Source: Spirosoma foliorum (lineage in GTDB: Bacteria > Bacteroidota > Bacteroidia > Cytophagales > Spirosomataceae). From it: 64,000 nucleotides of DNA. The notes beneath the pieces were generated by a model. It had not been told where the DNA came from. It did no database searches and worked only from the letters and a program-made list of their open reading frames with translations. The stretch spans positions 4,291,001 to 4,355,000 of the forward strand of contig NZ_CP059732.1 in NCBI RefSeq assembly GCF_014117325.1. Direction: 5' to 3'. This document shows positions 47,901-64,000 of the stretch, piece by piece. Each line of letters begins with the position of its first letter. Position 1 is the first letter of the stretch. The position numbers and the translations under genes are program-made.

Positions 47901-50900
47901 TTGATACAATGGCCGCACGCTGAATCCTGAGTGGACAGAAGCAGACTTTCAATACCCGAAGGTGCGATTGATACCGCTACGTGATCGGTATTGACCCCGA
48001 CAAGGATAAGTCCTTTCAATACCCGAAGGTGCGATTGATACGAGCGGGTAACGCGCCAAAGATACCCCCGTTAAAAAACTTTCAATACCCGAAGGTGCGA
48101 TTGATACCAACCCGGAAAGACGGGTGCCTGGGGAGGTCTTTCAACTTTCAATACCCGAAGGTGCGATTGATACTTTGACGGCCAGCATCGTGATAAACTT
48201 GGCGGTCGTACCTTTCAATACCCGAAGGTGCGATTGATACACTTAGTTGTAGAACTTAAGTGATCCAGCCTACTCCCTTTCAATACCCGAAGGTGCGATT
48301 GATACGTGGGTTCTGACCTGGATGAAGTCGCGAAAACCTTCACTTTCAATACCCGAAGGTGCGATTGATACGCTCCTTTCAGCGCCCAGCCTACGTAAGA
48401 AACCCACTTTCAATACCCGAAGGTGCGATTGATACCTCGCGTTGATCGTGTTCATGTTGCCACCGCTTTTCACTTTCAATACCCGAAGGTGCGATTGATA
48501 CCAGCGCAATTCGATTACAGGTCGTAATGGTTTGGGCCTTTCAATACCCGAAGGTGCGATTGATACGCGTGTATGCACAGCGAAACTGGCGCAAATCACC
48601 CTTTCAATACCCGAAGGTGCGATTGATACTTAAAGGCCAATACTTCGCCGTGGGGTCGTGGTAATCTTTCAATACCCGAAGGTGCGATTGATACACCATT
48701 CGGGCGTCTGGGAGGTAAGTGCCCAGAATTCCTTTCAATACCCGAAGGTGCGATTGATACGCGATTGAAGGCTGGATTAAGCGAACCTTTGAAAAATACT
48801 TTCAATACCCGAAGGTGCGATTGATACGGTTCCGTCCCAATTCAGCGGCAAGGCACATACGAACTTTCAATACCCGAAGGTGCGATTGATACTTTTTCTG
48901 TATTGGCAGTGGCCAGCGCAGTAGTTAACCTTTCAATACCCGAAGGTGCGATTGATACACCCCGCCGACTGCGTGAATGATTTTATTCAGCACCTTTCAA
49001 TACCCGAAGGTGCGATTGATACCATTCAGGCCCTTATCAATCGGTACCCGGACTACTTCGCTTTCAATACCCGAAGGTGCGATTGATACCATTATCCTGC
49101 CCGATGCGTCGGAGGTTGTAGCTCCTTTCAATACCCGAAGGTGCGATTGATACTACCTGGATCACTCCGGGTAGGGCCTTTTTGCATTTTACTTTCAATA
49201 CCCGAAGGTGCGATTGATACTTCTGGTATGGGATAATTTTGATGAGGATATTAATACCTTTCAATACCCGAAGGTGCGATTGATACACCGGCTCAGCGAG
49301 TTACAATGCGACGGGTTATATCCCTTTCAATACCCGAAGGTGCGATTGATACGTATCGACATCGAAACTGGCAGATGCCTCTGTGACACCTTTCAATACC
49401 CGAAGGTGCGATTGATACATCTTGGGGCTTGGTTTCCTATACTATCTCGACACAACTTTCAATACCCGAAGGTGCGATTGATACTGGGCGGCTGTCGTAC
49501 CGTGTGGGTTCGAAGTATTGCCTTTCAATACCCGAAGGTGCGATTGATACACCAGGCTTTCGGTTTGCGAAAGGGCGTTGATTTTTCTTTCAATACCCGA
49601 AGGTGCGATTGATACAGTATCCATTCTGTATGGGGGGGATACGCCTACCAGCTTTCAATACCCGAAGGTGCGATTGATACCTATATGGAGTCAATGGGGT
49701 TTATCGGTATCGTCTACTTTCAATACCCGAAGGTGCGATTGATACAGGACTCAAGATGCCTAAAAGCCTGATGATCGAGGTTCTTTCAATACCCGAAGGT
49801 GCGATTGATACATAGTACAATTAAAGGGCGATAAATAGGATATTTCACTTTCAATACCCGAAGGTGCGATTGATACTACTGGCGACCCCCAACAGGAGCT
49901 GAGTTATGCAACTTTCAATACCCGAAGGTGCGATTGATACTTAACACCCGACCATGTTCAGCTCGTGCAGGGCCACCTTTCAATACCCGAAGGTGCGATT
50001 GATACCGATACGCCCCTGGATATCTGTTTCGACGTGCAAACTTTCAATACCCGAAGGTGCGATTGATACGAGAGCAACGAATTGCAAGACCCCAATGCCT
50101 GGTATCTTTCAATACCCGAAGGTGCGATTGATACTCGACGACAACTACCGATCCTGGCTCGCAGACCACCACTTTCAATACCCGAAGGTGCGATTGATAC
50201 CTCCATTTGGCTGACTCGGCTGTGTGCGTCCAGCCACTTTCAATACCCGAAGGTGCGATTGATACTCGATGTACTTACCATCCTTCATCGCGTCCGTCAC
50301 CTTTCAATACCCGAAGGTGCGATTGATACTATCCAACGACCCGCTTTTTCGTGGACGTTTGGAACCCTTTCAATACCCGAAGGTGCGATTGATACCGTTG
50401 CACCCGAAGTCCTGGTAAACGTCAACCCCTGCTTTCAATACCCGAAGGTGCGATTGATACCCAATTCCAGCCTCTTTATGCAGGCTCCACGTGTCTTCTT
50501 TCAATACCCGAAGGTGCGATTGATACCTCCATGGCTACCTGTTCAGCAAGGGCATAGAACTCTTTCAATACCCGAAGGTGCGATTGATACGAACGGGTGT
50601 AAAGGTCACTTGGACGGTGGCACCATCTTTCAATACCCGAAGGTGCGATTGATACATTGTCAATGGCTTGCGTTAATGATTCGTTGTGGAGACTTTCAAT
50701 ACCCGAAGGTGCGATTGATACGGTTTTCCAACACCAAACACGGGCATTGTTGTTTCGCCTTTCAATACCCGAAGGTGCGATTGATACAATAGATTTTTGG
50801 CTATAGGCATTCATTTGAGTTAACTTTCAATACCCGAAGGTGCGATTGATACGCGTGATTTATGAAAGCATCCTTAATGACCTTGTTATCTTTCAATACC

Positions 50901-53652
50901 CGAAGGTGCGATTGATACAAGTGTTATTTCAGGAAGTGCAGTAACCTATTACAACTTTCAATACCCGAAGGTGCGATTGATACACGATTCAGGACCTAGA
51001 AGCGTGGAGCAAATACCTCAACTTTCAATACCCGAAGGTGCGATTGATACCGTAAAGCCCTCAACCGTTAGTACGTTTGCTTCCTGCCTTTCAATACCCG
51101 AAGGTGCGATTGATACCGTGGAATGGTGCAGCTTGGGTCGAAGGAATTAACGCTTTCAATACCCGAAGGTGCGATTGATACCGATAGTTAATAAACTTGG
51201 TATCCCTGTTTTTCCAGTCTTTCAATACCCGAAGGTGCGATTGATACCTGTACTGGAGCCTAACAAGATCGATCTGTTACCCACTTTCAATACCCGAAGG
51301 TGCGATTGATACCCATCAGCGTCGGTGCGGTTGCTGTTGATGGTGGACCTTTCAATACCCGAAGGTGCGATTGATACGCGGTAGGGCCAAGTTTCATGCA
51401 GAATTGCATACCCTTTCAATACCCGAAGGTGCGATTGATACATTGGGAAGAAGCCTTTGAAACTTACCGCGAAAATCTTTCAATACCCGAAGGTGCGATT
51501 GATACGGATTTTCTTTTATGACACTGGCATCACCTGTTAGAACTTTCAATACCCGAAGGTGCGATTGATACAAGGCAAACCCGTCGCTAAATCTGTCCAC
51601 GTTTTAACTTTCAATACCCGAAGGTGCGATTGATACCAGGATTAAAGTAGGTAAGAAGCCAGTCGGTTATACTACTTTCAATACCCGAAGGTGCGATTGA
51701 TACCCGAGAAGAACATGATTTGTCGACCCAGATCATCTTTCAATACCCGAAGGTGCGATTGATACGCGGGTTCACCATAGTGATGTCCCCCTTGCACCAG
51801 CTTTCAATACCCGAAGGTGCGATTGATACCCGCGAAACTGATTGATTGTGGTGAGGAGATATTCTCCTTTCAATACCCGAAGGTGCGATTGATACCACTG
51901 TGGGCCATGCTCAGTGGCCATGCAAAGGCCAACTTTCAATACCCGAAGGTGCGATTGATACTATTCTTCCGACTGTTATTGAGGAGTCAAGACAGGAGCT
52001 TTCAATACCCGAAGGTGCGATTGATACAGCCGATTAGTTTAGGGGTTTTCATAGTTCAGCATCTTTCAATACCCGAAGGTGCGATTGATACTACTTCACC
52101 TAAATCCAAAACATACAAATCAAGATCTTTCAATACCCGAAGGTGCGATTGATACCCCGAACGTGCCTGCCAGGGACCTAGAATCACATACTTTCAATAC
52201 CCGAAGGTGCGATTGATACTACTTTATTTCTGATGGTGTTATCTCCTGGACTTTTACTTTCAATACCCGAAGGTGCGATTGATACAGTGCCTGAACCCGA
52301 ATAACCATCGTAAACCACTTCGCCTTTCAATACCCGAAGGTGCGATTGATACCAACTTCAATTGTGCCGTCCTGGACGCGCGCTGGTTACTTTCAATACC
52401 CGAAGGTGCGATTGATACTGATCAAGAAGCTGAATCTGCCCCCCTTTCCTCCATGCTTTCAATACCCGAAGGTGCGATTGATACGATCACCACGAGTACC
52501 CAGAAAATTGAGATTTCCACCTTTCAATACCCGAAGGTGCGATTGATACCCCCTCGAAACCACTGCCATCGCACTGCTTACAACTTTCAATACCCGAAGG
52601 TGCGATTGATACTGAATTTGCCGCGTTTGATGGCGACCTCTTTGGCAACTTTCAATACCCGAAGGTGCGATTGATACCGTGTATAATATTTTGCGTTGGC
52701 GGCTGGTTGTACTTTCAATACCCGAAGGTGCGATTGATACCTTGATTTGGATGAACAATACAGTAATCACACCATTTCTTTCAATACCCGAAGGTGCGAT
52801 TGATACTGCCACCTGCTCCACCATTGCCGAGGTGATTCAAACTTTCAATACCCGAAGGTGCGATTGATACATGAACAGATAGCGGCTATTGAAGCCGTGG
52901 CGGTTGACTTTCAATACCCGAAGGTGCGATTGATACAAAAGTAGAATACCGATCATACCGGGCTTTACCAGTTCTTTCAATACCCGAAGGTGCGATTGAT
53001 ACGTTAATCTGAAAAATGTCGCGGCTAATAATACTCCCTTTCAATACCCGAAGGTGCGATTGATACGTTCCAAGATCAATGAGTTGATTTGTCATGCCAT
53101 CCTTTCAATACCCGAAGGTGCGATTGATACCAAGCAAATTGGCTGCGTCGATTGCTCCTTGAATAGCTTTCAATACCCGAAGGTGCGATTGATACCAGTG
53201 CCTGAGAAAGTGTGACCTCATGCCAGGATTCTTTCAATACCCGAAGGTGCGATTGATACTACTTGGAGCACCCGCACTTTGAACTAGTTGATCCTGACTT
53301 TCAATACCCGAAGGTGCGATTGATACATTCAAACTTAAATAACACTGAATCTTACCCGATACGACTTTCAATACCCGAAGGTGCGATTGATACTGGCTGC
53401 ATAGGTTACGTAGGTCCCTGATTGGAACCTTTCAATACCCGAAGGTGCGATTGATACGGTTTTTGAGCAATGTTCCTGACTGGAATGAAAATTTCTTTCA
53501 ATACCCGAAGGTGCGATTGATACCTGTATCGAAGTATTTGAGGGGCAGGGGTTAAAACCTTTCAATACCCGAAGGTGCGATTGATACGGTAAGGCTCGTT
53601 GACCCGGTTGAGGGTCATGTATTCTTTCAATACCCGAAGGTGCGATTGATAC
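41915..53652 (-). CRISPR. CRISPR array, 180 repeats (hand count), 179 spacers
   Basis: The repeat is 29 bp; on the plus strand it begins CTTTCAATACCCG and ends GCGATTGATAC. On the minus strand it starts GTATCAATCGCACC, has a TTCG tetraloop hairpin (ACC/GGT, with outer CAAT/ATTG pairing) and ends ATTGAAAG, the typical 8-nt handle, so transcription is leftwards. Spacers are about 34-38 nt (mean 36.4 from my count). The left end is the old end: the repeat at 41915 has several mismatches, that at 41982 has one (T to C at position 8), and that at 42181 one (C to T at position 12). The right end touches the leader next to cas2. I counted repeat by repeat; the total fits the 11,738-bp span. Translated frames seen here are artefacts of the repeat. 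Confidence 0.98.
46372..46918. repeat. Duplicated block of eight spacers (copy of 43166-43712)
   Basis: From repeat 43166 to repeat 43684 and from repeat 46372 to repeat 46890 the array is the same: eight successive spacers in the same order, 547 bp each, copies 3,206 bp apart. The first duplicated spacer starts GCAACGATGCTTATT and the last starts TAGAGTTACACC. Flanking spacers differ, so this is a segmental duplication inside the array, not independent acquisition. Confidence 0.95.
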
Positions 53653-53871: not shown

Positions 53872-54135
53872 TTATAAAAACCGCGTTCGGTTTACCTCAT
53901 CAGTACCGAGGGCAATACGTTCGACATAGCGTTCGTCGCGAAACTGATAAAACACCACGCCGTCATTGTCCTGCAAAAGCGCATCCGCTTCCAATTGTAA
54001 TTGCTTTAACTGACCAACGGTTAGGTCACCTTCAAAGACGGAATTCTGCACCCATGTTAGGTAACGCCGGAATAATTTGAGCATTTTACCCACTCGCTTC
54101 TGCTTCACATCATAAACGGCAATACAAAACGGCAT
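53872..54135 (-). CDS. cas2: Cas2
   Basis: An 87-residue protein: FCIAVYDVKQKRVGKMLKLF with the Y-D metal site, then YLTWVQNSVFEGDLT, typical of Cas2. It forms the spacer-integration complex with Cas1. It is the last cas gene before the leader; 27 bp separate it from cas1. Confidence 0.96.
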   Translation of the reverse strand: MPFCIAVYDVKQKRVGKMLKLFRRYLTWVQNSVFEGDLTVGQLKQLQLEADALLQDNDGVVFYQFRDERYVERIALGTDEVNRTRFL

Positions 54136-54162: not shown

Positions 54163-55248
54163 TTACCACCACATATGAAAACCCTGATATGGATCGCCGA
54201 CCGGATCGCACAAGTGACGCACAAGTTTGTAGCACTCGTGGCGAATCAGCCGCTCGTAGGATACTTTCTTGTTCATGGTGCGGTGCTGGACGGTCTGGCT
54301 TAGGCGCTCATCCCAATGGCTAACCACAATTTTACGTCCGGCCTCGGTTAAATAACAGCCGCCCAGGTATTTCTCAAAATGCCGTGGATTCAGCTCGCCC
54401 GTTTTTAGGAGCCGAAAAATCATCCGATCCACCAGCAGGGGTTTAAAGACTTCAGCCAAGTCTAAGGCCAACGAGAATCGTCGGTCGCCAGGTTCATGCA
54501 GGTAGGCAATGGTCGGATCGAGAGCTGTCCGGTAAATCTGCCGCAGTACGGTCGAATAGCAGAGCGAGTTGCCAAACGAAATCAGGGCGTTCAACTCATT
54601 CGAAGGTGGTCGTCGTTCACGTTTGTTGAAGGGAAACCGGGCCGCTACTTCCGGCCCCAGAAAGTGGGGCCAAAGTCGATAGTACCGATCCCGAATACGC
54701 CCTTCAACCGCCATTAGCGTGGGAATATCAACCGTCAGCGGTAGGGCATCTCGGTCTTTTTTCAGTTCCAGTAAGGTAGCTTGCACGGCTGCTTGCTTCT
54801 CCCCTGCTAACCGAGGTTGGTAGTATTTGATAACGCGCTCAATGTTGAACAGAGCCGCTTCTACAAAGGCGCGGGCCAATACCAGCCGCCGTTTCGCACT
54901 CAGATAATGCCGGGCCTGATCAACGCGCAACCGCCCCGACAACTGCCCCTCCCGAGGGAACAGCGTGGCCGTATAATTGCCATAGTAGTCGTAGAAAAAC
55001 GTCGGAATACCCTGCTGCCCTAGGAACGTGACGAGTTTGCTGTTGATGTCGATTTCGCCGAACAGGTACAGACTGTCGACGGCTTCGACGGGAAACGGGG
55101 ATCGGGCACCGTCGGCCTCGGCGGAAGGCAATCCCTCGTCGTCGGGGGCATCATCAGGCAATCGCTCGCCCGTTGTGCGCTCTAGGCATAGGGTATTGTG
55201 CTGGCGACGCAATCGGCCGCTTGAAAAAAGGTAGTGTGGTCGTTTCAT
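54163..55248 (-). CDS. cas1: Cas1 integrase
   Basis: A 361-residue protein. The N-terminal beta domain (residues about 1-110) includes LYLFGEIDINSKLVTFLGQQ. The catalytic domain has E in LMAVEGRIRDRYY near 179, the block NALISFGNSLCYSTVLRQIY near 220, H in AYLHEPGDRRF near 249 and the acidic D-L-A-E block near 261, all expected for the metal site. It carries out spacer integration. A 25-residue acidic insertion (ERTTGERLPDDAPDDEGLPS) sits near residue 25, longer than in many relatives. Confidence 0.96.
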   Translation of the reverse strand: MKRPHYLFSSGRLRRQHNTLCLERTTGERLPDDAPDDEGLPSAEADGARSPFPVEAVDSLYLFGEIDINSKLVTFLGQQGIPTFFYDYYGNYTATLFPREGQLSGRLRVDQARHYLSAKRRLVLARAFVEAALFNIERVIKYYQPRLAGEKQAAVQATLLELKKDRDALPLTVDIPTLMAVEGRIRDRYYRLWPHFLGPEVAARFPFNKRERRPPSNELNALISFGNSLCYSTVLRQIYRTALDPTIAYLHEPGDRRFSLALDLAEVFKPLLVDRMIFRLLKTGELNPRHFEKYLGGCYLTEAGRKIVVSHWDERLSQTVQHRTMNKKVSYERLIRHECYKLVRHLCDPVGDPYQGFHMWW

Positions 55249-55315: not shown

Positions 55316-55864
55316 TCATCCATAGCAGAGTTCTTCGAAGGCGCATTTGGTGCAGAATACCCGCTTGGTTAGTCGGGGCGGTGGCGTTTCCTGAGCCGCT
55401 ATGGACCGGATTGCCGACACGGTAGTGGCTAGTTCCGTGATGTGTTCAGCATCCAGCGTGACAGGTTCTGTCCGGCGCAGCAACGGGTAATCTATTTGAC
55501 CGGTAAACGGCTGTCCATTGAAACGAGTTACTCCGTTGAGATAAAGTAGCCAGAGGTAGAACCGTAGCTGCCAGCGGTGCGAATCCTCGCAGGCGCGGCC
55601 TTTCTTGGTTTCGTGCAAGACACCGTTTTTAAGGTTCGTCCGGTCGATCTTACCGACCAGTTCCGTGCCATCAGGAGCTTCGGCGTCAATGGAGAGGTGC
55701 TTCTCGTCGCGGCTGTAGCTGTGGTCATCGAGTAGTCGTCCGAGCGCCACCGCGTCCGACTCCTGCTCCATCCACAACCCCCGCATCGACAGCCACGCTT
55801 TGCGGGGACATAACCGATAGTAGCCTACTAGCATCCCACCGATGCGAGGGTTAAGGGTGGTCAT
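55316..55864 (-). CDS. cas4: Cas4 exonuclease
   Basis: A 182-residue RecB-like nuclease. Cysteine C near 19 (RLCPRKAW) and three at the end (FCTKCAFEELCYG) bind an iron-sulfur cluster. Nuclease motifs: D in GKIDRT, E-T-K in LHETKKG and Q-x-x-x-Y in QLRFYLWLLY. In type I systems Cas4 defines PAM and length of new spacers. Its ATG overlaps the cas7 stop by 1 bp. Confidence 0.95.
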   Translation of the reverse strand: MTTLNPRIGGMLVGYYRLCPRKAWLSMRGLWMEQESDAVALGRLLDDHSYSRDEKHLSIDAEAPDGTELVGKIDRTNLKNGVLHETKKGRACEDSHRWQLRFYLWLLYLNGVTRFNGQPFTGQIDYPLLRRTEPVTLDAEHITELATTVSAIRSIAAQETPPPRLTKRVFCTKCAFEELCYG

Positions 55865-56916
55865 CAGTTTTCGTACTTATAAGCTGACAACAATTCGATT
55901 AGCCGTTGTTCCGCCTGTTCCATCGCATCGACCGAACCGCTAACACCCGGCACATACCCTTTGCAAGCCAGAGAAGTAAATAAATCAACTCCCTCAATAG
56001 GCTCAACAACTGGAATCGCCCGGTAGCTGTTGTCCCTATTTTGTTCAGAGTCCAGGTCGGCTCGAATAGCTCCAGCAATCCGACTGGCATTGTCGCTAAT
56101 AGTAATAGCCAACATCGTTTGCGGACTGTAAGTACGCGCCTGATTACTAGTGATATGCCAGTTAACTAGTGCCGACGCCAAAGCTGGAATAATTTCCGTT
56201 CGACGCTCAGCGGGAGCAATCAGCCGTTCGCCATCAGCGGAGGCTACCCAGCCAGCATCTCGCAGATTTTGTAATGAATCCGCTGTTAGTTCCGGTTCAT
56301 GTTGATTAACGGAAACACTAAATAACCGATTTAGATCGATGGCAACATCGAAGACAAACAAGCCCGTTGTTCGGGAATTATCTGGAATCCAGTGCCGACG
56401 CGGTAACGTGCGTTGTTTTCTGGTTAGATAATCATTAATCTGCTCCTCAGAAAGTGCTTCTCCGGCAGCGTTGATAACGCGTATTGGATTATTGTCCGGT
56501 CGGTCACTCCGGTCGAATGTCAAATTTTCGTTTGTCATGCTAACCAGCAATGGGTGCAATGGACGCATAGCCGAAATAGACAGTGGACTACGTCGTTTCA
56601 AGGTTACCACGCCCGGACGCGCCCGCATCCAGCCCCCAATCAACTGATCGGCGTACGTTGGATCACAGGGTGACCATGGCTCTTTATTTCCTAACTCGTC
56701 TTTGTTATTGATCTCGTAATTGAACGTCACAGGTGCCCGATTCTCTTCCAGCGTTTCGGAGAGCATATCAAGCAACGAGCGTTTTACCTGCTGGCCGCTT
56801 GAGTAAGAAACTCGTTTATTAAACGTTGGATCATAGTAGTTTTTCTGTCCATCCTGAACAGCAAAAACAGTATGTTCGGCTATTTTTAAGCCGCGTAGAT
56901 AAAGGTAAGGTTTCAT
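55864..56916 (-). CDS. cas7: Cas7 backbone subunit of Cascade
   Basis: A 350-residue protein with the Cas7 opening YLYLRGLKIAEHTVF and the block RVSYSSGQQVKRSLLDML near residues 35-52, the RNA-binding helix of the family. A later RRM-like core includes GLFVFDVAIDLNRLF. It forms the helical filament on crRNA. It ends overlapping cas4 and starts 7 bp after cas8. Confidence 0.85.
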   Translation of the reverse strand: MKPYLYLRGLKIAEHTVFAVQDGQKNYYDPTFNKRVSYSSGQQVKRSLLDMLSETLEENRAPVTFNYEINNKDELGNKEPWSPCDPTYADQLIGGWMRARPGVVTLKRRSPLSISAMRPLHPLLVSMTNENLTFDRSDRPDNNPIRVINAAGEALSEEQINDYLTRKQRTLPRRHWIPDNSRTTGLFVFDVAIDLNRLFSVSVNQHEPELTADSLQNLRDAGWVASADGERLIAPAERRTEIIPALASALVNWHITSNQARTYSPQTMLAITISDNASRIAGAIRADLDSEQNRDNSYRAIPVVEPIEGVDLFTSLACKGYVPGVSGSVDAMEQAEQRLIELLSAYKYEN

Positions 56917-56923
56917 TTTTCGA

Positions 56924-58273
56924 TTAGTTAGCTTTTGATGTACTGGTGATTAATTTGGCCTCTTCGACTGCGTATTTTAGTTTCAGAAGGGCAATAAAGA
57001 GCGGAATATCCGTTAGAGGCATGACCGCAATCATACTGGCTATTTCATTCAGCATTGGGTGCTGATCTGGTATTTTATCAATTAACCTGGCAAAGCGCTC
57101 GATCAATTGATTGCGATTAGTAGAGTTCGTTAATTCATTGACTAGATTACTTCCCCCTTTTTTGCCTCGTTGAGTAGGGTCTGACACTTGAATAAGTATG
57201 GCAGCTACTTTTTCGCTGAGTTCCAATAATTTCCTGTTGTTTAGCATGGCAGTGATCCAGGTTTCATAAATTTTGTAAGTGATCCATAATGAGTCTTCTT
57301 TGTTCTTTGGCGTTTTAAACAGCTTGCTATTCCCACGCGCTCCGGGCATGTATTCGCGCAGGCTTTCTGGCTCAATTGCCTGGACACCGATAGCACCTAA
57401 TTCGCAGGCTTTTTGAAACCCCATTTCGGTTTCATACAAACTGGCTACTTTTTCATAAGACAAGCCTTCTCGCAAGAGAAAAAGCTGCCGATGAAGTTCA
57501 CGTAACACCTCAACTATGTCACGCAATTGAATCTGAATGAATCCGACTGTTGTGTTCATCTGGCTGAGCGAATACACATACGCTGTTAGCGGACGTGGAA
57601 TTTTGTGAGCCAGCGCAAAAATGACACCTACCCACTTCTGCGTTTCCAGACTTGCAATCCCCGAAGCTTTATCTATTTTTACATCAGGCTGATGGCTAAA
57701 CGGTTCATCGGTCGGTTCGAAATCATCCCGAAATGCATTGGTAATCCACCAACCATTCCAGGTATTAATCTGGTGTGGTTTCAGGTTATGCATCTGCTTC
57801 ATGAAGGCCCGATAATATTGCCAGCCATCATACAGAGTCAGTAAGACAAGATCATCGTCAACCAGTACGTTTAGTCCGCCACTTACCCCAATTCCTAAAG
57901 CTGCTCCAATCCACGAAGCATACACTTCTTCGGGTGAGATGGGTAACAGAATGTCGGTTACCTGCCCCGACGTACCGGCCGTCGCTTCGGCTGCGGCACC
58001 GCCCAAAAAGAAGGAACCATCAGGGGTGTCGTGTTGGATTCGCTGATGCTGAGCCGCCAAAACATTCGTCCGCACCACTTCCGTAAGTGGTGTTTTTCCT
58101 TTCTGCTTATAGGCTTGATCGAACTTCGAATTATTGACGTGTTGCAAGAATCGTTCGTCGTTGAAGAACAACGTAAAATACTCATTCGAGAAAAAATCCT
58201 GCACCGTTCGTTGGGTATGGTCGCGAGTGTTGAGTAATTCAACAAGCCGACGCCCTAGGTAAGCTGTGTACAT
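56924..58273 (-). CDS. cas8: Cas8 large subunit (type I, divergent)
   Basis: A 449-residue protein in the position of the large subunit, between cas3 and cas7. I see no strongly conserved motif; the N-terminus (MYTAYLGRRLVELLNTRDHT), a Gly-rich stretch (GGAAAEATAGTSGQV) and a helical C-terminal third fit Cas8b-like proteins, where the C-terminal helices replace Cas11. The identification rests on locus context and size. It recognises the PAM in known systems. Confidence 0.75.
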   Translation of the reverse strand: MYTAYLGRRLVELLNTRDHTQRTVQDFFSNEYFTLFFNDERFLQHVNNSKFDQAYKQKGKTPLTEVVRTNVLAAQHQRIQHDTPDGSFFLGGAAAEATAGTSGQVTDILLPISPEEVYASWIGAALGIGVSGGLNVLVDDDLVLLTLYDGWQYYRAFMKQMHNLKPHQINTWNGWWITNAFRDDFEPTDEPFSHQPDVKIDKASGIASLETQKWVGVIFALAHKIPRPLTAYVYSLSQMNTTVGFIQIQLRDIVEVLRELHRQLFLLREGLSYEKVASLYETEMGFQKACELGAIGVQAIEPESLREYMPGARGNSKLFKTPKNKEDSLWITYKIYETWITAMLNNRKLLELSEKVAAILIQVSDPTQRGKKGGSNLVNELTNSTNRNQLIERFARLIDKIPDQHPMLNEIASMIAVMPLTDIPLFIALLKLKYAVEEAKLITSTSKAN

Positions 58274-58274
58274 A

Positions 58275-60515
58275 TCAGATCATTCGTTTAGCTGTAGTTG
58301 AGGAAGCTCCCGCGCGCACCGATTCTGGTTTATCGGGCAATACCAGTCCTAGTGTAATACCTTCTGGGTCATATTGATACAAATTATCTGGAATAACGTA
58401 TGGATAATTACCTGCTTCGAGTGGAGGAAAGGTTTTGGCAGCAACGAAAGCGGCAATACTCTTCCAGGGAACGGGTATCTCTAATTCTTGGCGGTTTATA
58501 CCCTTCGGTTTTAAGTACGTTTCCCGATCCTTTGCCAGAATGCAAACGGCTCCATCTATTTCAAGAGCAGCAATCAGGTATGACTTCGGACGATGACACA
58601 GTTCCCAAATAGGAGCGGTGTGAACATCAATCGGTGGAACAGTAATTTTATCGTATACCTGATTTATGAGTTGCTGCAACTCCGTCTCACGTAGTAATCC
58701 ATCGGGCAACAAATCAAAACTGCGTCGCACCACATCCGCATCATAAGGCTGGATGTCTTTGTCTGTAGTAGCTGGTGCGATTACGTGAACCGGCTTGTAT
58801 GTACCAATCGTATCGGAAGTGCGTCGACGGTGAATACGCCCGAAACGCTGAATCAAGCTATCCAATGGAGCGGCATCCGTTACTAGTCGGTCAAACGAAA
58901 TATCTAAACTTACTTCGACAACCTGTGTAGCAATGACCACGCATGGCCCCTCTGACTTGTCAAATACATCAATCAGGCTTTCCAAATCAGCTCTGTCACA
59001 CCGTCGGAAACGACTATGAACCAACAATACAGGCACGTTCGGCAATTCTTTTTGCGCCCATTGGTACCGTTCCTGAGCAAGTTTAACCCGATTAGCGACA
59101 AACAAGACACGCTCCTTATTTTCACCCGTAACTACTTTTTTCACCAGCGCACGAGCAGATGTTTCATCAAGCAACTTGCTCACTTCATGTCGGTTAAATT
59201 TGGTAAGCGCTCGCTTCTTTAACTGAACCTGGTAAACACGTCGGCTACCGCCCAGTGCATTAATGAAATGTTGTTTTAGATCATCAGGAATAGTAGCTGT
59301 GCCAATATGCACCCGGCATCCTAACCGTACCAGTTCCTTGACCAACTCAAGTGTCATTGCCCGAGCCAGATTGTCGTATACATGCACCTCATCTAAAATC
59401 ACGTCGCAGTCAGCAACATCGAGTGCTGCCGCTTCATGACCACTAGTCTTAAATACAATACTAGCCAACTGGTGCGGAGTTGTTACTTTAATACTAGCTC
59501 CTGGATTTCGCTGCCGGAATTGTTCTTCTTCAATCTGCTTACCTTTTTCGTCTCGAAGCCTGATCTGTGACGATGCGTGCGCCCGCCGAACATCCGTTTG
59601 CTCGTTGCGAGGCAGCCATTTACCATCTTTCTTGTTTAAATTTTCGTTTACTCGAAGGTACATGGCATTGATTGAAGCCTGAAACGGCAACGTATATACG
59701 ACTCGCCCTAGACAACGGCGTAGCAAAAAGTCTGTCTTTCCAGCCCCCGTCGGCGCAATAACCAGCGTGTGCCGGTTTCGGCGATCCGTTGGCAATAATG
59801 AAAGAGGGTGTAAATCAGACTGTCGACTGTAATAAGTGAGATTAGGCCGCTTATAGTAGCTATTAAGAAGTGATTTAGCCTCGTGCATGTGCTCGGAGGC
59901 AAAATGGTCAGCACTCATCAGCAAACCTCGCCATCGCGACCGACCAGTAGGTCGACTTTTACAGTACTCAATGGCGTAATCAAACGCTTCTCGGGCCTCT
60001 TCGCGGCTGATTAAACGGTAGTTTACCTTGAATGCTTTTACTACAGGTTCTACCCGCGCCGACCAGACTTCCCACACTTCATGGCAACCGCTGTAGGTAT
60101 AATCGGCGTGCCGGAGAAATACATCATTGGGCCCAAAATCACGTTTCAAATCATTGAGTCCGCGTCTGGATGCGTTATTATTCTGTAATGACTTTAATGA
60201 TTTATGGTGAGCAACAACCGTATCAATTAGAATAGGCCAATCCCTTCGGTCGAATAAGGGTAGAAAAAGCAGCGACGAAATCTCGTGCCGGTGTGGATCA
60301 GATTCATCATTCTCTATTTTGCCAATCTTTCCCTGTAACACGCGCTGAAAATAAGGATGAGCTTTGCCTAGGTCATGCAGTACAGCACCCAATCGAGCTA
60401 ATCTCGTGTTAAAGCCGTATTCCCGTGCCATTTTCAAAATACAGTCGACCACGTGCTGCGTGTGCTGCAACAGCGTCAATCCTCCCTGTTCGGGACTTTT
60501 TGCTAAGAGTTCCAT
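58275..60515 (-). CDS. cas3: Cas3 HD nuclease-helicase
   Basis: A 746-residue single-chain Cas3. HD domain: LLQHTQHVVDCILKMA near 15, GAVLHDLGKAHPYF near 45 and VVAHHKSLKS near 105. Helicase: Walker A IAPTGAGKTDFL near 252, DEVH box VILDEVHVYDN near 372, and motif VI IQRFGRIHRR near 568. Cascade recruits it to degrade target DNA. All catalytic residues are present. It overlaps cas5 by 1 bp and is followed by cas8 after 1 bp. Confidence 0.95.
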   Translation of the reverse strand: MELLAKSPEQGGLTLLQHTQHVVDCILKMAREYGFNTRLARLGAVLHDLGKAHPYFQRVLQGKIGKIENDESDPHRHEISSLLFLPLFDRRDWPILIDTVVAHHKSLKSLQNNNASRRGLNDLKRDFGPNDVFLRHADYTYSGCHEVWEVWSARVEPVVKAFKVNYRLISREEAREAFDYAIEYCKSRPTGRSRWRGLLMSADHFASEHMHEAKSLLNSYYKRPNLTYYSRQSDLHPLSLLPTDRRNRHTLVIAPTGAGKTDFLLRRCLGRVVYTLPFQASINAMYLRVNENLNKKDGKWLPRNEQTDVRRAHASSQIRLRDEKGKQIEEEQFRQRNPGASIKVTTPHQLASIVFKTSGHEAAALDVADCDVILDEVHVYDNLARAMTLELVKELVRLGCRVHIGTATIPDDLKQHFINALGGSRRVYQVQLKKRALTKFNRHEVSKLLDETSARALVKKVVTGENKERVLFVANRVKLAQERYQWAQKELPNVPVLLVHSRFRRCDRADLESLIDVFDKSEGPCVVIATQVVEVSLDISFDRLVTDAAPLDSLIQRFGRIHRRRTSDTIGTYKPVHVIAPATTDKDIQPYDADVVRRSFDLLPDGLLRETELQQLINQVYDKITVPPIDVHTAPIWELCHRPKSYLIAALEIDGAVCILAKDRETYLKPKGINRQELEIPVPWKSIAAFVAAKTFPPLEAGNYPYVIPDNLYQYDPEGITLGLVLPDKPESVRAGASSTTAKRMI

Positions 60516-61081
60516 TATTCGAGGGGATCAGCGCCAACGGGTCTACCAATAATCCTCACGGTGCCATACATCGGTTGATTCGCCTGAAAGCGGTCATATC
60601 CGACCATAACCGCCGATGAGCCTTCACCAAACAAAAGTTCGAAGCCAGGAATTTGGTCAAACTCGTCAGCGGACATAGTCAGTACCAAACCATCTGGTAG
60701 CAATACATCCTCATTTCGACATAAACAGACATGTTGCTCAGCTGCCAGTTCGGCATCTTCAGGGGTCGAAAAAGCCAGATGCAAGACTGGATTCAGCATA
60801 ACACCCCGTATCAGAATTGATTGCTCCCGCGTTGCCCGTTTCCGTTTGGCTTCGATAACAAACGCCCTTGATTGCGTCCGTTCCTGTTGCTGATCAATTT
60901 TGGCATACGACAATCGATGCCGCAGAATTACCTCTACCCCCAGTTTTTGCCGAATACCTTCAACAATACTTGGCGTCAGAAACTGCTGGCTGAATGTTCG
61001 TTCATCGCGCACAGCGGTCCAAGGTTTGATGTAGCCGAAGGGTCCGGTATAGCGGACGACATAGTAAAGTTCTTGGCTCAT
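60515..61081 (-). CDS. cas5: Cas5
   Basis: A 188-residue protein with the Cas5 features: a beta-strand start (YYVVRYTGPFGYIKPWTAVR), the block SQQFLTPSIVEGIRQKLGVE and a middle strand pair with arginines (RKRATREQSILIRGVML). It caps the 5' handle of crRNA in Cascade. The gene lies between cas6 and cas3, not beside cas7, which differs from typical I-B order. Confidence 0.8.
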   Translation of the reverse strand: MSQELYYVVRYTGPFGYIKPWTAVRDERTFSQQFLTPSIVEGIRQKLGVEVILRHRLSYAKIDQQQERTQSRAFVIEAKRKRATREQSILIRGVMLNPVLHLAFSTPEDAELAAEQHVCLCRNEDVLLPDGLVLTMSADEFDQIPGFELLFGEGSSAVMVGYDRFQANQPMYGTVRIIGRPVGADPLE

Positions 61082-61095
61082 AATGGGTTATCGGA

Positions 61096-61764
61096 TTAAC
61101 GTAATGCGCCAAAACCACTGCCTGTTAATTCACCAAGTCCCACCGTCCAGGCAAAATGTAGTGCATCGGGAGTTCCCTCAACAATCACCGGGCATTCACT
61201 TCCCCGATGATTAGTACCTTTAATAGCGATCTTTCGAGTGCGGGCAGTTTGGTAGGTACGATCGAACGAAACTGTAACGCCGAGATCGGCTCCAGAAAAG
61301 CCAGCCGCTATAAGTTTGCGCTGAAATGACTGGGTTAGCGCCTGATCAGTAGCTGGATCATCCCAGAGTAGATAGGCTCGCGAGCCATCGGGCCGTTTTT
61401 GGCGAATGACAATCGAGGAGCCGTCTGTCAGGAAATAATGCTGGGCTTGAAACGGTGGTGGGGCTACCTCACGAATCTCATAAATCTGCATACCAAAGCC
61501 CAACTCAGGTTGGTCCAATATACCTTTTAGTAGTTGCCGAGCTTTCTCGTCATCAAAAAAAGATATGTTCCAATTGGCTCCTTTGGGGAAACGTAAGGAA
61601 GCATTGCGACTTTCGCCCCCTCGTAACCAGCCGAAGCTATATAAACTCAAGCCATCGTGAATATCGTTTCGGCCTAGCCATTTGTGCAAAGCACCAGTAA
61701 GCTGGTGTAAATGGTCGTAGGGAACCGGTTGGGTATTGGGCGTTAGTTGTAGTTGAAGACGCAT
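61096..61764 (-). CDS. cas6: Cas6 CRISPR RNA endonuclease
   Basis: A 222-residue protein with two ferredoxin-like domains and the C-terminal Gly-rich loop VGLGELTGSGFGALR. A probable catalytic His is in the N-terminal segment (HLHQLTGALHKWLG). It cuts the repeat at the base of the ACC(UUCG)GGU hairpin to leave the handle AUUGAAAG. First gene of the cas operon, 14 bp before cas5; its upstream region contains the crRNA-like unit. Confidence 0.9.
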   Translation of the reverse strand: MRLQLQLTPNTQPVPYDHLHQLTGALHKWLGRNDIHDGLSLYSFGWLRGGESRNASLRFPKGANWNISFFDDEKARQLLKGILDQPELGFGMQIYEIREVAPPPFQAQHYFLTDGSSIVIRQKRPDGSRAYLLWDDPATDQALTQSFQRKLIAAGFSGADLGVTVSFDRTYQTARTRKIAIKGTNHRGSECPVIVEGTPDALHFAWTVGLGELTGSGFGALR

Positions 61765-61857
61765 AGGTGGTTTAGAAGGTTGTTATTTGCCGTTAATAAG
61801 CGATGTGGGTCAAAGGTGAATGACCATTCCGCCAGAAATTGACGGTTTACAGAAAAA

Positions 61858-61944
61858 AATACCCGAAGGTGCGATTGATGATTGGGGTGAATTAATATCC
61901 CCTATGCACTACTAATTTCAATACCCGTAACGGGTGCGATTAAT
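61858..61944 (-). ncRNA. crRNA-like guide unit: pseudo-repeat, spacer, pseudo-repeat
   Basis: On the minus strand the first pseudo-repeat (61916-61947) has the canonical start altered, a lengthened hairpin ACCCG-TTA-CGGGT in place of ACC-TTCG-GGT and the intact handle ATTGAAA. The spacer (61880-61914, 35 nt) follows. The second pseudo-repeat (61858-61879) matches 22 bases of the array repeat exactly, keeps the hairpin and replaces the handle by ATTTTTTT, so it also looks like a terminator. The unit is on the cas strand, 94-185 bp before the cas6 start. Its spacer matches 18 of 23 positions at 63425-63447. Probably processed by Cas6 and loaded into Cascade; role as regulator is inference. Confidence 0.7.
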
Positions 61945-62137
61945 TACATTGTGAATAGTTTGGCACTAGAAGCTATGAAAGCACTGATATCCAGGGCATT
62001 TGATAAAAAGATGCGATCACAGCTTGGCTGACAATCCCTCAATAATATGACTTTAGGGCACCCTAGAAGGTTAATGCAAATACTAGCCAAATCTTTGTCT
62101 TGAGTAATAACCAATGATGGTGAAAATTCTATAATTT

Positions 62138-63189
62138 TAGGACTTACGCAAAGGCAACTGAAGGATTCGCCAACTCTTGACGAAGGTAAGCATCTAATAA
62201 GCCTTGTTTGAGTTGGTAAACCGTTTTCTTAGTCTGATAAGCCAACTGTTTAAAACGTAACCAAGTCAGAGCCGCTAAGCCAATGTGATTGCGTTGACTA
62301 CGAGCTAATCGACATTGACAACATTCCAGACCCGTGATCTGCTTATCTTCTCGATGAAACTGCTCAATTGTCCAACGAATACCACTTTTTTCTTCAGCGG
62401 CACTCGTCTCATTTTGAGCTAAATCGTTGGTGACGATATAGTCCGTCCGGTGGGTAGACACCAGTACGCGGAACAGTTTAAGATAGGTGTTTTGAGGCAT
62501 CTTGTGTACTTTAACCAGCTTACCCTGCTGCACCTGTTGAGCTGACCAGCTCAGATAGCTGACAGGTTGATACGATTCTTTGCCACCTGAATCATCGACC
62601 TTACGGTTGCTCTTGATAGGACAGTAAAACAGTTTTTCATTGGTAATGAGCCACTTGAAGAGGTCGGTCACAGCATACCAACTGTCCATTAAGACGATTC
62701 GATAACTGATCTGGCGGGGTGCTAGTTGGTTAAGCATGTCCAACACATGATCCAACTTGCTTTTTCCATCCTCATCGGGATTAAAAATACGGTAGTCAAT
62801 GAGCCAGAACTGATTAATTTTAGGATTGAAGTAGACACAATTAACCACACCGATGCCTTTGATGATTCCATGAGCATTTCCACTGTATTGCCGACGAACC
62901 AGTTCAATTTTATGACTATGTTCTTTATTGAGCACGGTATCATCAAAGAGGATATAGCCATCGGTATCCAGTTGAATTTGGTGGCGGACATGTTGCCAGA
63001 CCTGGCGAGGTGCCACTCGGCTAGCTTTGAGAAAGTACTGCACATTGTCATGGGTGATCCCTTCCAGGTGATCAGCCAAGTAGGTAGCCGTATAGTTGAT
63101 CTGGCTACTCAGTAGAAACTGTCCGTAAAGTTGTGCGGTGACCTTCAAGCTATTTTTTATTTCAATTTACCACTTTTGCGTAAGTCCTA
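62138..63189 (-). mobile_element. IS701-like insertion sequence, 1,052 bp
   Basis: Perfect 15-bp terminal inverted repeats TAGGACTTACGCAAA at 62138-62152 and the complement at 63175-63189, flanked by the 5-bp duplication AATTT (62133-62137 and 63190-63194). One transposase gene fills the element. The insertion disrupts the 111-codon ORF. Ends are intact, so the insertion may be recent. Confidence 0.92.
62144..63148 (-). CDS. IS701-like (IS4 superfamily) DDE transposase
   Basis: A 334-residue transposase with TTG start at 63148. Motifs: YILFDDTVLNKEHSHKIELV with the first D, VLMDSWYAVTDLFKWLI with the second D, and IRWTIEQFHREDKQITGLEC with the catalytic E (Y-R-E/W-x-I-E-x-F-H type). The stop codon lies inside the left terminal repeat. 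Intact, so probably functional. Confidence 0.9.
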   Translation of the reverse strand: MKVTAQLYGQFLLSSQINYTATYLADHLEGITHDNVQYFLKASRVAPRQVWQHVRHQIQLDTDGYILFDDTVLNKEHSHKIELVRRQYSGNAHGIIKGIGVVNCVYFNPKINQFWLIDYRIFNPDEDGKSKLDHVLDMLNQLAPRQISYRIVLMDSWYAVTDLFKWLITNEKLFYCPIKSNRKVDDSGGKESYQPVSYLSWSAQQVQQGKLVKVHKMPQNTYLKLFRVLVSTHRTDYIVTNDLAQNETSAAEEKSGIRWTIEQFHREDKQITGLECCQCRLARSQRNHIGLAALTWLRFKQLAYQTKKTVYQLKQGLLDAYLRQELANPSVAFA

Positions 63190-63374
63190 AATTTGCTGAA
63201 TCACTTCTTCATTGTCATATTTTTTGCTCTGGTTTTCAGAAATTATTATCAACTCACTCTTATCAAAGAATGTGAGCGTCCGGAGCGTCCGTCGAAAAAT
63301 AGGTTGGATTTCTGGAGTAACTACTACTAGCTTCATAGTATCTTGAGTTTATTTCCTGATTTTCACAACTATAA

Positions 63375-63406
63375 CAAAAGTAATTTTGTTCAGCCTTACA
63401 CAGAAA
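63375..63406 (-). promoter_or_regulatory. Promoter for the split ORF and guide unit
   Basis: On the minus strand TACTTTTG (63375-63382) fits the Bacteroidota −7 box TAnnTTTG exactly; TTTC at 63403-63406, 20 bp upstream, is one base off the −33 TTTG. Transcription would begin near 63365, 30 bp before the ORF start at 63336. Confidence 0.5.
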
Positions 63407-63411
63407 ATAAA

Positions 63412-63447
63412 TCCAAATTTTTCGTTAATTTCTACTTTGCATTACTA
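63412..63447 (-). promoter_or_regulatory. Candidate Cascade-binding site for the crRNA-like guide
   Basis: Read on the minus strand from 63447, the sequence matches the guide spacer at positions 1-5, 7-10, 12-13, 16-17 and 19-23. Mismatches at 6 and 18 fall where type I crRNAs do not pair. The three bases before the site are CCG, a possible PAM. The site ends 5 bp before the −33 element. See findings. Confidence 0.55.
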
Positions 63448-63474
63448 CGGTATGTTATGACTATAATAAGATAA

Positions 63475-64000
63475 TCAAAAGTATTTCTTTGTCATCATTT
63501 CTACACGCGCAGCCATTTTCTCTCGCAGTTCAGCTGGTTCCATCACTTCGACCAGTTCGCCAAAAGCCAGAATTTCACGTTCAAGTTCGTGGTTGAGAAT
63601 GACGGTCAATTCGAGATCAACAAAATCGGGGGTTTCCTGAATCAGCCGCTGACTACTGTGCAACGGTAGTGAACGGACGTAGTTGGCTTCGCTGGTCTGG
63701 AAGCGCAGGATCACCCGTTGAGGTTCGAGGTCAGGCGGACAGGTTACTCCGATAGCGTGTCGGCGGTCGGTTCGACGCTGGCCAGTATGGGCGGTGGAAA
63801 TAGGCTGATCGGTTAGTGTAAGTCCGTGTAACCGATCTAGGCCGAAGGTGCGTGGCCGATTGGCTTCCAGATCAAAACAATCCAGATAAAATCGATTACG
63901 GTACTCCAGCAGTAAATCCGGTTCTACCCGCCGGAGCTTTCCTTCGTCGGCCTCTTTTTCAAACTTTCGGTAGACAAACTCCACACAGCGACCTGTTTGT
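63475..64000 (-). CDS. WYL-domain transcriptional regulator, C-terminal part
   Basis: The frame is open to the right edge of the window and the visible part (about 175 residues) starts inside the WYL domain: CVEFVYRKFEKEADEGKLRR, VEPDLLLEYRNRFYLDCFDL, and RTFGLDRLHGLTLTDQPIS, the last being the family's F-x-L-D-R-I-like block. The C-terminal WCX part follows. The N-terminal winged helix must lie outside. WYL regulators often control CRISPR or phage-defence operons and this one precedes the cas locus on the same strand. Confidence 0.88.
   Translation of the reverse strand, partial: QTGRCVEFVYRKFEKEADEGKLRRVEPDLLLEYRNRFYLDCFDLEANRPRTFGLDRLHGLTLTDQPISTAHTGQRRTDRRHAIGVTCPPDLEPQRVILRFQTSEANYVRSLPLHSSQRLIQETPDFVDLELTVILNHELEREILAFGELVEVMEPAELREKMAARVEMMTKKYF

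What the first reader, a model, noticed from the sequence alone, without database searches (positions are those of the whole stretch)
63412..63447. The guide's spacer matches the promoter region of the adjacent split ORF
Aligning the guide spacer to the minus strand from 63447 gives 18 matches in the first 23 positions, with the seed intact (1-5, 7-10). The mismatches at 6 and 18 are at positions that type I crRNAs do not pair. My rough estimate of this level of match by chance is about 1 in 10 million per position at equal base frequencies; the AT-rich DNA makes the true chance higher. The site lies directly upstream of the −33 element for the ORF. A guide that binds without cutting (partial match) and represses its neighbour is the mechanism of CreTA-like addiction modules.
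Basis: partly seen in the sequence, partly recalled or inferred. Interest (0 to 1): 0.9.

Follow-up and report, generated by a model that had tools for sequence, protein, structure and literature searches.

The report
CRISPR guide controlling a nuclease-like toxin
Next to its CRISPR genes this bacterium carries a built-in guide RNA gene that matches, imperfectly but in the way such guides pair, the switch region of a neighbouring gene that may be a toxin, which suggests the immune machinery keeps a toxin silent; here that gene has been split by a jumping gene, while two related species keep it whole.

Summary
The match is real. The guide (61882-61914, minus strand, between two degenerate repeats upstream of cas6) matches 63447-63425 at 18 of 23 positions, behind CCG. 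Over the 20 positions that type I guides pair, it is the only site in the 8.85 Mb genome within 3 mismatches, apart from the guide itself. Six further cas6 loci (two homologous to this one, four with unrelated guides) show the same design: PAM CCG, seed 1-5 intact, few matches at 6, 12, 18, 24. Direct covariation between homologues is thin: one joint change (position 9).

The targeted gene encodes about 110 aa and was found whole only in Spirosoma sp. SC4-14 and Fibrisoma limi. It is remotely similar to DUF5615 nuclease-like toxins; a more distant locus has the target between DUF433 and DUF5615 genes. In two other loci of the same genus a tRNA/tmRNA-like RNA takes the gene's place.

Best explanation: a CreTA/CrePA-like module in which Cascade with the guide represses a toxin. 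In this genome it is broken, because a probably recent IS copy splits the gene. It is a new variant of a known kind. Toxicity and repression are inferred, not shown.

The parts
63448..63450 (-). PAM-like triplet CCG
   Evidence: the same triplet in 7 of 7 loci of the pairing table; an eighth candidate, L012, has CCC or CCA depending on register
63413..63447 (-). target (pseudo-protospacer) of the guide, upstream of the ORF; 18 of its first 23 positions match
63375..63382 (-). -7 box-like TACTTTTG (Bacteroidota-type TANNTTTG, consensus recalled) in the block ACAAAATTACTTTTGT, also present in L003 and, as TGCTTTTG, in L008
63187..63336 (-). N-terminal piece (49 codons and stop) of the targeted, remotely DUF5615-like ORF
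62138..63189 (.). insertion sequence (transposase 62144-63148, minus strand; ends TAGGACTTACGCAAA; 5-bp duplication AATTT at 62133-62137 and 63190-63194) that splits the ORF
61944..62132 (-). C-terminal piece of the targeted ORF; its stop codon lies inside the first degenerate repeat
61915..61947 (-). degenerate repeat psiR1 (last 8 nt, the 5' handle, 7 of 8 as in the array repeat)
61882..61914 (-). guide spacer (psiS, creA-like)
61853..61881 (-). degenerate repeat psiR2 (last 8 nt 3 of 8 as in the array repeat; ends in a T run)
61096..61764 (-). cas6b
60515..61081 (-). cas5b
58275..60515 (-). cas3
56924..58273 (-). cas8b
55864..56916 (-). cas7b
55316..55864 (-). cas4
54163..55248 (-). cas1
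53872..54135 (-). cas2
41916..53652 (-). main CRISPR array, 180 repeats found (minus-strand reading GTATCAATCGCACCTTCGGGTATTGAAAG)
63475..64000 (-). WYL/WCX regulator (runs out of the window; continues in L049)

Best explanation
A CRISPR-regulated toxin-antitoxin module of the CreTA/CrePA kind sits immediately upstream of a type I-B cas operon. A creA-like gene (degenerate repeat - spacer - degenerate repeat) would be cut by Cas6 into a crRNA-like guide. Loaded into Cascade, the guide would bind the CCG-flanked, imperfectly matching site in the promoter region of the neighbouring gene and block its transcription without cutting. The neighbouring gene encodes a remote DUF5615 (PIN-like, predicted nuclease) relative, here inferred to be a toxin released when Cascade fails. 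In this genome an IS copy has split that gene, so guide and target survive but the toxin is presumably dead. Shown by sequence: the guide gene, the target, the shared CCG, the repeated pairing pattern and the IS insertion. Inferred: Cas6 processing, repression, toxicity.
For: (1) Over 20 paired positions the site is unique in the 8.85 Mb genome at <=3 mismatches; control 0. (2) Two relatives keep the ORF whole with guide and target in place: L003 = Spirosoma sp. SC4-14 and L008 = Fibrisoma limi. Position 9 is C in guide and target in the window, T in both in L008. (3) Five independent guide-target lineages share the design: window/L003/L008, L004, L007, L009, L059. All seven loci have CCG; positions 1-5 match at 35 of 35, 1-5 and 7-11 at 65 of 70, 6/12/18/24 at 3 of 28 (the scans selected for the paired positions). 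Guides of L004, L007, L009 and L012 tried on the window's locus reach only 12-14 of 20. (4) Blind scan of 48 cas6 locus entries (44 places, 309 possible handles): 32 hits at >=15/20 over all entries, 6 of them with CCG, and those 6 are exactly the ones behind degenerate repeats, each 99-475 nt upstream on the same strand. Of 20,000 random guides, 161 have any such match within 700 nt upstream and 2 have one with CCG. (5) Repeat decay like published creA: against the window's array repeat, psiR1 handle 7-8 of 8 and psiR2 3-5 of 8 in 6 of 6 loci compared (PMC8501985, Discussion read). (6) Effector genes complete and type I-B: Cas3, Cas5b, Cas6b, Cas7b, Cas8b. (7) Toxin-likeness: ORF profile against DUF5615, hhalign E 0.0011, 0 of 300 column shuffles reach the score. 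In L059 the target lies between DUF433 (E 7.6e-25) and DUF5615 (E 6e-21) genes, beside a mini-array and cas6. (8) Published H. [quoted passage not shown]
Against: No expression, repression or toxicity data. The ORF has no match in Pfam, NCBIfam, PADLOC or PDB sequences (PHROGs not searched), and the DUF5615 link is remote (hhalign probability only 21%). A codon test of L003 against L008 gives 13 synonymous and 12 non-synonymous codons of 108, weak evidence that the protein sequence is under selection. The predicted fold gave generic alpha/beta matches, none with Foldseek E <= 0.001. Between homologues there is one joint guide-target change only, and L003's target does not pair at seed positions 8 and 9. 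Alone, L004 and L012 are weak: 60 and 130 of 2000 shuffled guides do as well. The PAM of the main array could not be tested: no array match in the phage or plasmid collections, and one imperfect protospacer in L024 is preceded by TGT. In L009 and L012 the regulated product is not clear, and L012's register is ambiguous. Only 7 (8 with L012) of 56 cas6 places examined carry such a module by this scan. In this genome the toxin-like gene is broken.
Confidence: 0.72

Rival explanations
1. CreR-like self-regulation: the guide represses a promoter that also feeds the cas operon, so the target gene is incidental and the purpose is to tune Cas levels.
For: The toxin-like gene, guide gene and cas6 are on one strand in that order, so read-through from the targeted promoter could reach cas6. 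CreR guides of type I-B systems among others pair partially with promoters (PMC13131331, passage). L012 has only a short stretch between target and guide gene, and no ORF of at least 25 aa was found between its WYL gene and mini-array.
Against: A promoter-like stretch directly upstream of cas6, downstream of the guide gene, is seen in loci with and without the module (read by eye). The target lies about 1.7 kb upstream of cas6 in the window and about 620 nt upstream in L003. In 6 of 8 mini-array loci (window, L003, L008, L004, L007, L059) a toxin-like ORF or structured RNA lies between target and guide gene.
Confidence: 0.14
2. The mini-array is a CRISPR remnant and the match is a chance resemblance in AT-rich DNA.
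For: A raw 18/23 match is expected about twice per genome, and at least one equal raw match exists elsewhere.
Against: Unique over paired positions; same geometry and CCG in 7 of 7 loci; random-guide control 2 of 20,000.
Confidence: 0.02
3. The guide represses the neighbour, but the neighbour is not a toxin: for example a small regulator or a defence protein switched on when Cascade is inhibited.
For: The ORF is an orphan (2 proteins in the 5.8-billion collection) with only remote DUF5615 similarity. The best structural matches are mostly receiver-like alpha/beta proteins, none significant by Foldseek.
Against: The L059 locus has a clear DUF433/DUF5615 pair in the same arrangement. The ORF is split in the window, and L002, L005 and L006 have cas6 without a mini-array, as expected if losing the gene is easy or favoured.
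Confidence: 0.12

Closest known systems
CreTA (CRISPR-regulated toxin-antitoxin RNA pair), H. hubeiense type
   Same: Type I-B Cascade; guide gene with two diverged degenerate repeats; [quoted passage not shown] pairing in the seed with a PAM-flanked site upstream of the partner gene (PMC8501985)
   Different: Partner in the window lineage is a protein gene of about 110 aa, not a small RNA with a rare-codon mini-ORF; a different phylum (Bacteroidota, by recall of the genus); PAM-like CCG rather than TTC; toxin-like gene broken in this genome. L004 and L007 carry structured RNAs instead
CrePA (CreA RNA plus protein toxin CreP)
   Same: A crRNA-like RNA represses a protein-coding partner through the CRISPR effector (PMC12737573, section 3.3 read)
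   Different: CreP typically has a KilA-N domain; the window ORF has no Pfam match and resembles DUF5615 remotely
CreR (Cas-regulating RNA)
   Same: crRNA-like guide with partial promoter match, in type I-B among others (PMC13131331, passage)
   Different: CreR represses cas genes; here the target is the promoter region of a separate upstream gene
DUF433/DUF5615 toxin-antitoxin pairs
   Same: L059 has both genes; window ORF profile resembles DUF5615
   Different: In the window lineage the stretch between the WYL gene and the ORF is only about 140 nt and holds no DUF433 gene (L003 ORF list); the antitoxin role would be taken by the guide RNA (inference)

Membership tests
CreTA | guide gene with repeat-derived ends linked to a cas locus | tested here: met
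   psiR1-psiS-psiR2 at 61947-61853 next to cas6
CreTA | psiR1 keeps the 5' handle better than psiR2 | tested here: met
   7-8 of 8 against 3-5 of 8 in 6 of 6 loci compared, all against the window's array repeat; the other genomes' own repeats, L059 and L012 were not compared
CreTA | partial pairing with a PAM-flanked site in the promoter of the partner | tested here: met
   that CCG is this system's PAM is inferred from recurrence only, and the promoter is inferred from a motif
CreTA | partner is a small toxic RNA | tested here: not met
   window lineage has a protein ORF: 89% protein identity between L003 and L008, relatives only at this spot. Synonymous and non-synonymous changes are about equal, so an RNA role is not excluded. 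L004/L007 have structured RNAs, toxicity untested
CreTA | Cascade-dependent repression and toxicity on loss of Cascade | not testable with these tools
   needs experiment
CrePA | partner is a protein toxin repressed by CreA and the CRISPR effector | tested here: inconclusive
   protein partner likely; toxin and repression not tested
CrePA | CreP typically with a KilA-N domain | tested here: not met
   no Pfam match for the L003 and L008 ORFs even at E 10
CreR | guide pairs with a cas promoter | tested here: not met
   best match in the locus and genome is upstream of the split ORF, not at the cas6 promoter region
DUF5615 | match to the family profile | tested here: inconclusive
   no Pfam match; hhalign E 0.0011, probability 21%, 0 of 300 shuffles reach it, D61, D63, K76, V77, I78, R81 shared with 8 DUF5615 proteins

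The most novel reading that the evidence does not exclude
The stretch between the WYL regulator and cas6 in these type I-B loci is a plug-in site. In it Cascade with a creA-type guide silences interchangeable toxins: DUF5615-like nucleases taken from DUF433/DUF5615 pairs, whose protein antitoxin has been replaced by a CRISPR guide, or tRNA/tmRNA-like RNAs that may poison translation by mimicry. A type II toxin has thereby been rewired into a CRISPR addiction module.
Probability: 0.45. Interest if true: 0.85.

Novelty: new variant of a known kind. Interest (0 to 1): 0.72.

Why it matters
If true, CRISPR-controlled toxins extend to a nuclease-like toxin family known from protein-neutralised pairs, and the L059 locus would show a possible step in the change from protein antitoxin to guide RNA. 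The window would also show how such an addiction module can end: the toxin gene is split by a jumping gene, while guide, target and the whole cas operon stay. The set of natural guide-target pairs, with their repeated blanks at 6, 12, 18 and 24, gives direct test material for repression without cutting.

Full report
What is there. The window belongs to an 8.85 Mb genome (G000) whose same-genus relatives include Spirosoma sp. SC4-14 and Spirosoma terrae (names by matching contig lengths and places). On the minus strand run a WYL/WCX regulator (63475 and beyond), an intergenic stretch, an ORF split by an insertion sequence, a mini-array, then cas6b, cas5b, cas3, cas8b, cas7b, cas4, cas1, cas2 and a main array of 180 repeats. 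The effector proteins match type I-B models.

The observation. The mini-array is psiR1 (61947-61915), spacer (61914-61882), psiR2 (61881-61853). Its spacer matches 63447-63425 at 18 of 23 positions, with mismatches at 6, 11, 14, 15 and 18, behind CCG. By raw count about two such matches are expected per genome, and at least one equal one exists, at G000:C1:2744277, with a mismatch at position 2 and GAA in front (the list was capped). Over the 20 positions that type I guides pair, the target is the only site within 3 mismatches besides the guide itself, control 0. In the local 4 kb, 1 of 2000 shuffled guides reaches the score.

Relatives. The window's Cas6 finds relatives in 6 of 36 genomes of the genus (own genome included) and 22 of 222 of the family; an alignment finds 40 of 390 genomes drawn from the order. 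L003 (Spirosoma sp. SC4-14) and L008 (Fibrisoma limi) carry the ORF whole, with mini-array and target in place. The ORF family occurs in 3 of 222 family genomes, always at this spot, and in 2 proteins of the 5.8-billion collection. L004, L007 and L009 have mini-arrays with unrelated guides, each with its best match in the locus upstream on the same strand behind CCG. L002 (Spirosoma terrae), L005 and L006 have no mini-array in the stretch held.

Blind test. In 48 cas6 locus entries (44 distinct places; four fetched twice), every TGAAAN was taken as a possible handle (352 in all, 309 in distinct places) and the next 24 nt as a guide. Of 32 matches at >=15 of 20 positions on either strand, 6 had CCG in front, and those 6 are exactly the ones at degenerate repeats: L003, L004, L007, L008, L009 and the new L059 from another family. 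Twelve more places gave no CCG hit (same strand only). With guides from random positions, 161 of 20,000 had any such match in 700 nt upstream and 2 had one with CCG, so about 0.03 would be expected among 309 handles. The window's own entry (L001) ends before the target and could not count in this scan. The scan sees only modules within 1.5 kb of cas6 and with that handle.

Pairing pattern. Over seven loci (window, L003, L008, L004, L007, L009, L059) matches per position 1-24 are 7,7,7,7,7,1,7,5,6,7,5,1,6,5,5,5,5,0,5,4,4,5,4,1. Seed 1-5 and 7-11: 65 of 70. Positions 6, 12, 18, 24: 3 of 28. The scans ignored those four positions and selected for the others, so the contrast is partly built in; the ignored positions are at or below chance (7 of 28 expected). 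Three of the seven loci are homologous, so there are five independent lineages. In window, L003 and L008 the CCG and positions 1-5 and 19-23 are conserved in DNA that varies around them. One joint change with pairing kept is seen, position 9 between window and L008; none between window and L003 or L003 and L008, and L003 does not pair at 8 and 9. So upkeep is loose, and the main support is the recurrence in unrelated guides.

Shuffle tests of the single loci are uneven: shuffles reaching the observed score were 1 (window), 0 (L003), 2 (L008), 60 (L004), 5 (L007), 6 (L009) and 130 (L012) of 2000. L004 and L012 are thus weak alone. L012 has an ambiguous register (CCC or CCA) and is not in the pairing table.

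The partner. The ORF starts at 63336. An IS of 1052 bp (62138-63189), flanked by the 5-bp duplication AATTT, splits it; 13 near-identical full-length copies of the IS lie in the genome, this one included, so the insertion is probably recent. Both pieces were handled apart. The ORF's stop codon lies inside psiR1, so toxin-like gene and guide gene may be one transcript, as reported for the auto-repressed H. hubeiense creTA operon (PMC8501985, passages). A promoter-like element TACTTTTG (63382-63375) is conserved; the target lies upstream of it. In four relatives (L003, L008, L004, L007) other such boxes lie 29-37 nt from the target start. The start of transcription is unknown.

Is it a toxin? 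No library searched matches it. Its two-sequence profile against 19 DUF5615 proteins gives hhalign E 0.0011, probability 21%, and 0 of 300 column shuffles reach the score; D61, D63, K76, V77, I78 and F101 are invariant in the joint alignment. In L059 the target lies between a DUF433 gene and a DUF5615 gene, relatives of which one source names 'predicted nuclease of predicted toxin-antitoxin system'. In that assembly the DUF5615 gene carries an in-frame stop near its start. So in both this window and L059 the toxin-like gene is damaged while guide and cas6 remain, which fits release from addiction; for L059 a sequence error is also possible. The codon test is not strong (13 synonymous against 12 non-synonymous codons of 108), and the structure search did not help.

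RNA partners. In L004 and L007 a hairpin followed by a tRNA-like element (acceptor-like stem and TTCGACT arm) lies between target and guide gene. With the hairpin the folds are more stable than shuffles (z -2.65 and -3.15), but the tRNA-like part alone is not clearly so (z -0.03 and -1.82). Its 3' end resembles the 3' ends of tmRNAs from genomes of the family. Rfam's tmRNA model matches L007 at 18.6 bits, below its cut-off of 47 and below the 27 bits it gives a tRNA-Phe. These are candidate RNA toxins; mimicry of tmRNA or tRNA is an idea, not a result.

Comparison with the known. Published creA genes more commonly have two repeats, of which in most psiR1 keeps the 5' handle and psiR2 the 3' handle; H. 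[quoted passage not shown] Here the 5' handle and the place agree; the 3' handle part does not separate psiR1 from psiR2 clearly (17-20 against 17-20 identities of 21). CrePA pairs CreA with a protein toxin, typically KilA-N (PMC12737573 section 3.3). CreR guides repress cas genes (PMC13131331 passage). The window module works like CreTA/CrePA, but its partner is neither a small RNA nor KilA-N, so I call it a new variant rather than a member of either.

Verdict. Guide-target relation: very likely real. Module with a protein toxin: likely (0.72). Functional addiction in this genome: unlikely now, because the gene is split.

Noticed in passing
L004 oriented 1160-1275 and L007 oriented 1115-1225: Hairpin plus tRNA/tmRNA-like element between target and guide gene, in place of the protein ORF; candidate RNA toxins, not found by ARAGORN.
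   Followed up: partly
L059 oriented 704-1343: DUF433/DUF5615 pair with the guide's target between the two genes; the DUF5615 gene has an in-frame stop near its start in this assembly.
   Followed up: partly
window 62138-63189: IS with 13 near-identical full-length copies in the genome (this one included), inserted in the toxin-like ORF with a 5-bp duplication.
   Followed up: yes
window around 63375-63390 and L003/L008 equivalents: Conserved block ACAAAATTACTTTTGT is also an inverted repeat by eye, a possible operator overlapping the -7 box.
   Followed up: no
L003 oriented 855-885: Inverted repeat ATCTTG/CAAGAT directly upstream of the PAM by eye, weaker in window and L008; possible regulator site.
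   Followed up: no
window 41916-53652: Very long array (180 repeats) with no match in the phage or plasmid collections; one spacer matches L024 430-461 (G147) over 32 nt at 94%.
   Followed up: partly
L009 oriented 1104-800: Divergent ORF of 101 aa without Pfam or NCBIfam match whose start region faces the guide's target; the regulated product at that locus is unclear.
   Followed up: partly
L012 oriented 1286-1415: Mini-array with diverged repeats and a target only about 50 nt upstream; perhaps self-control of the guide or of the cas genes.
   Followed up: no
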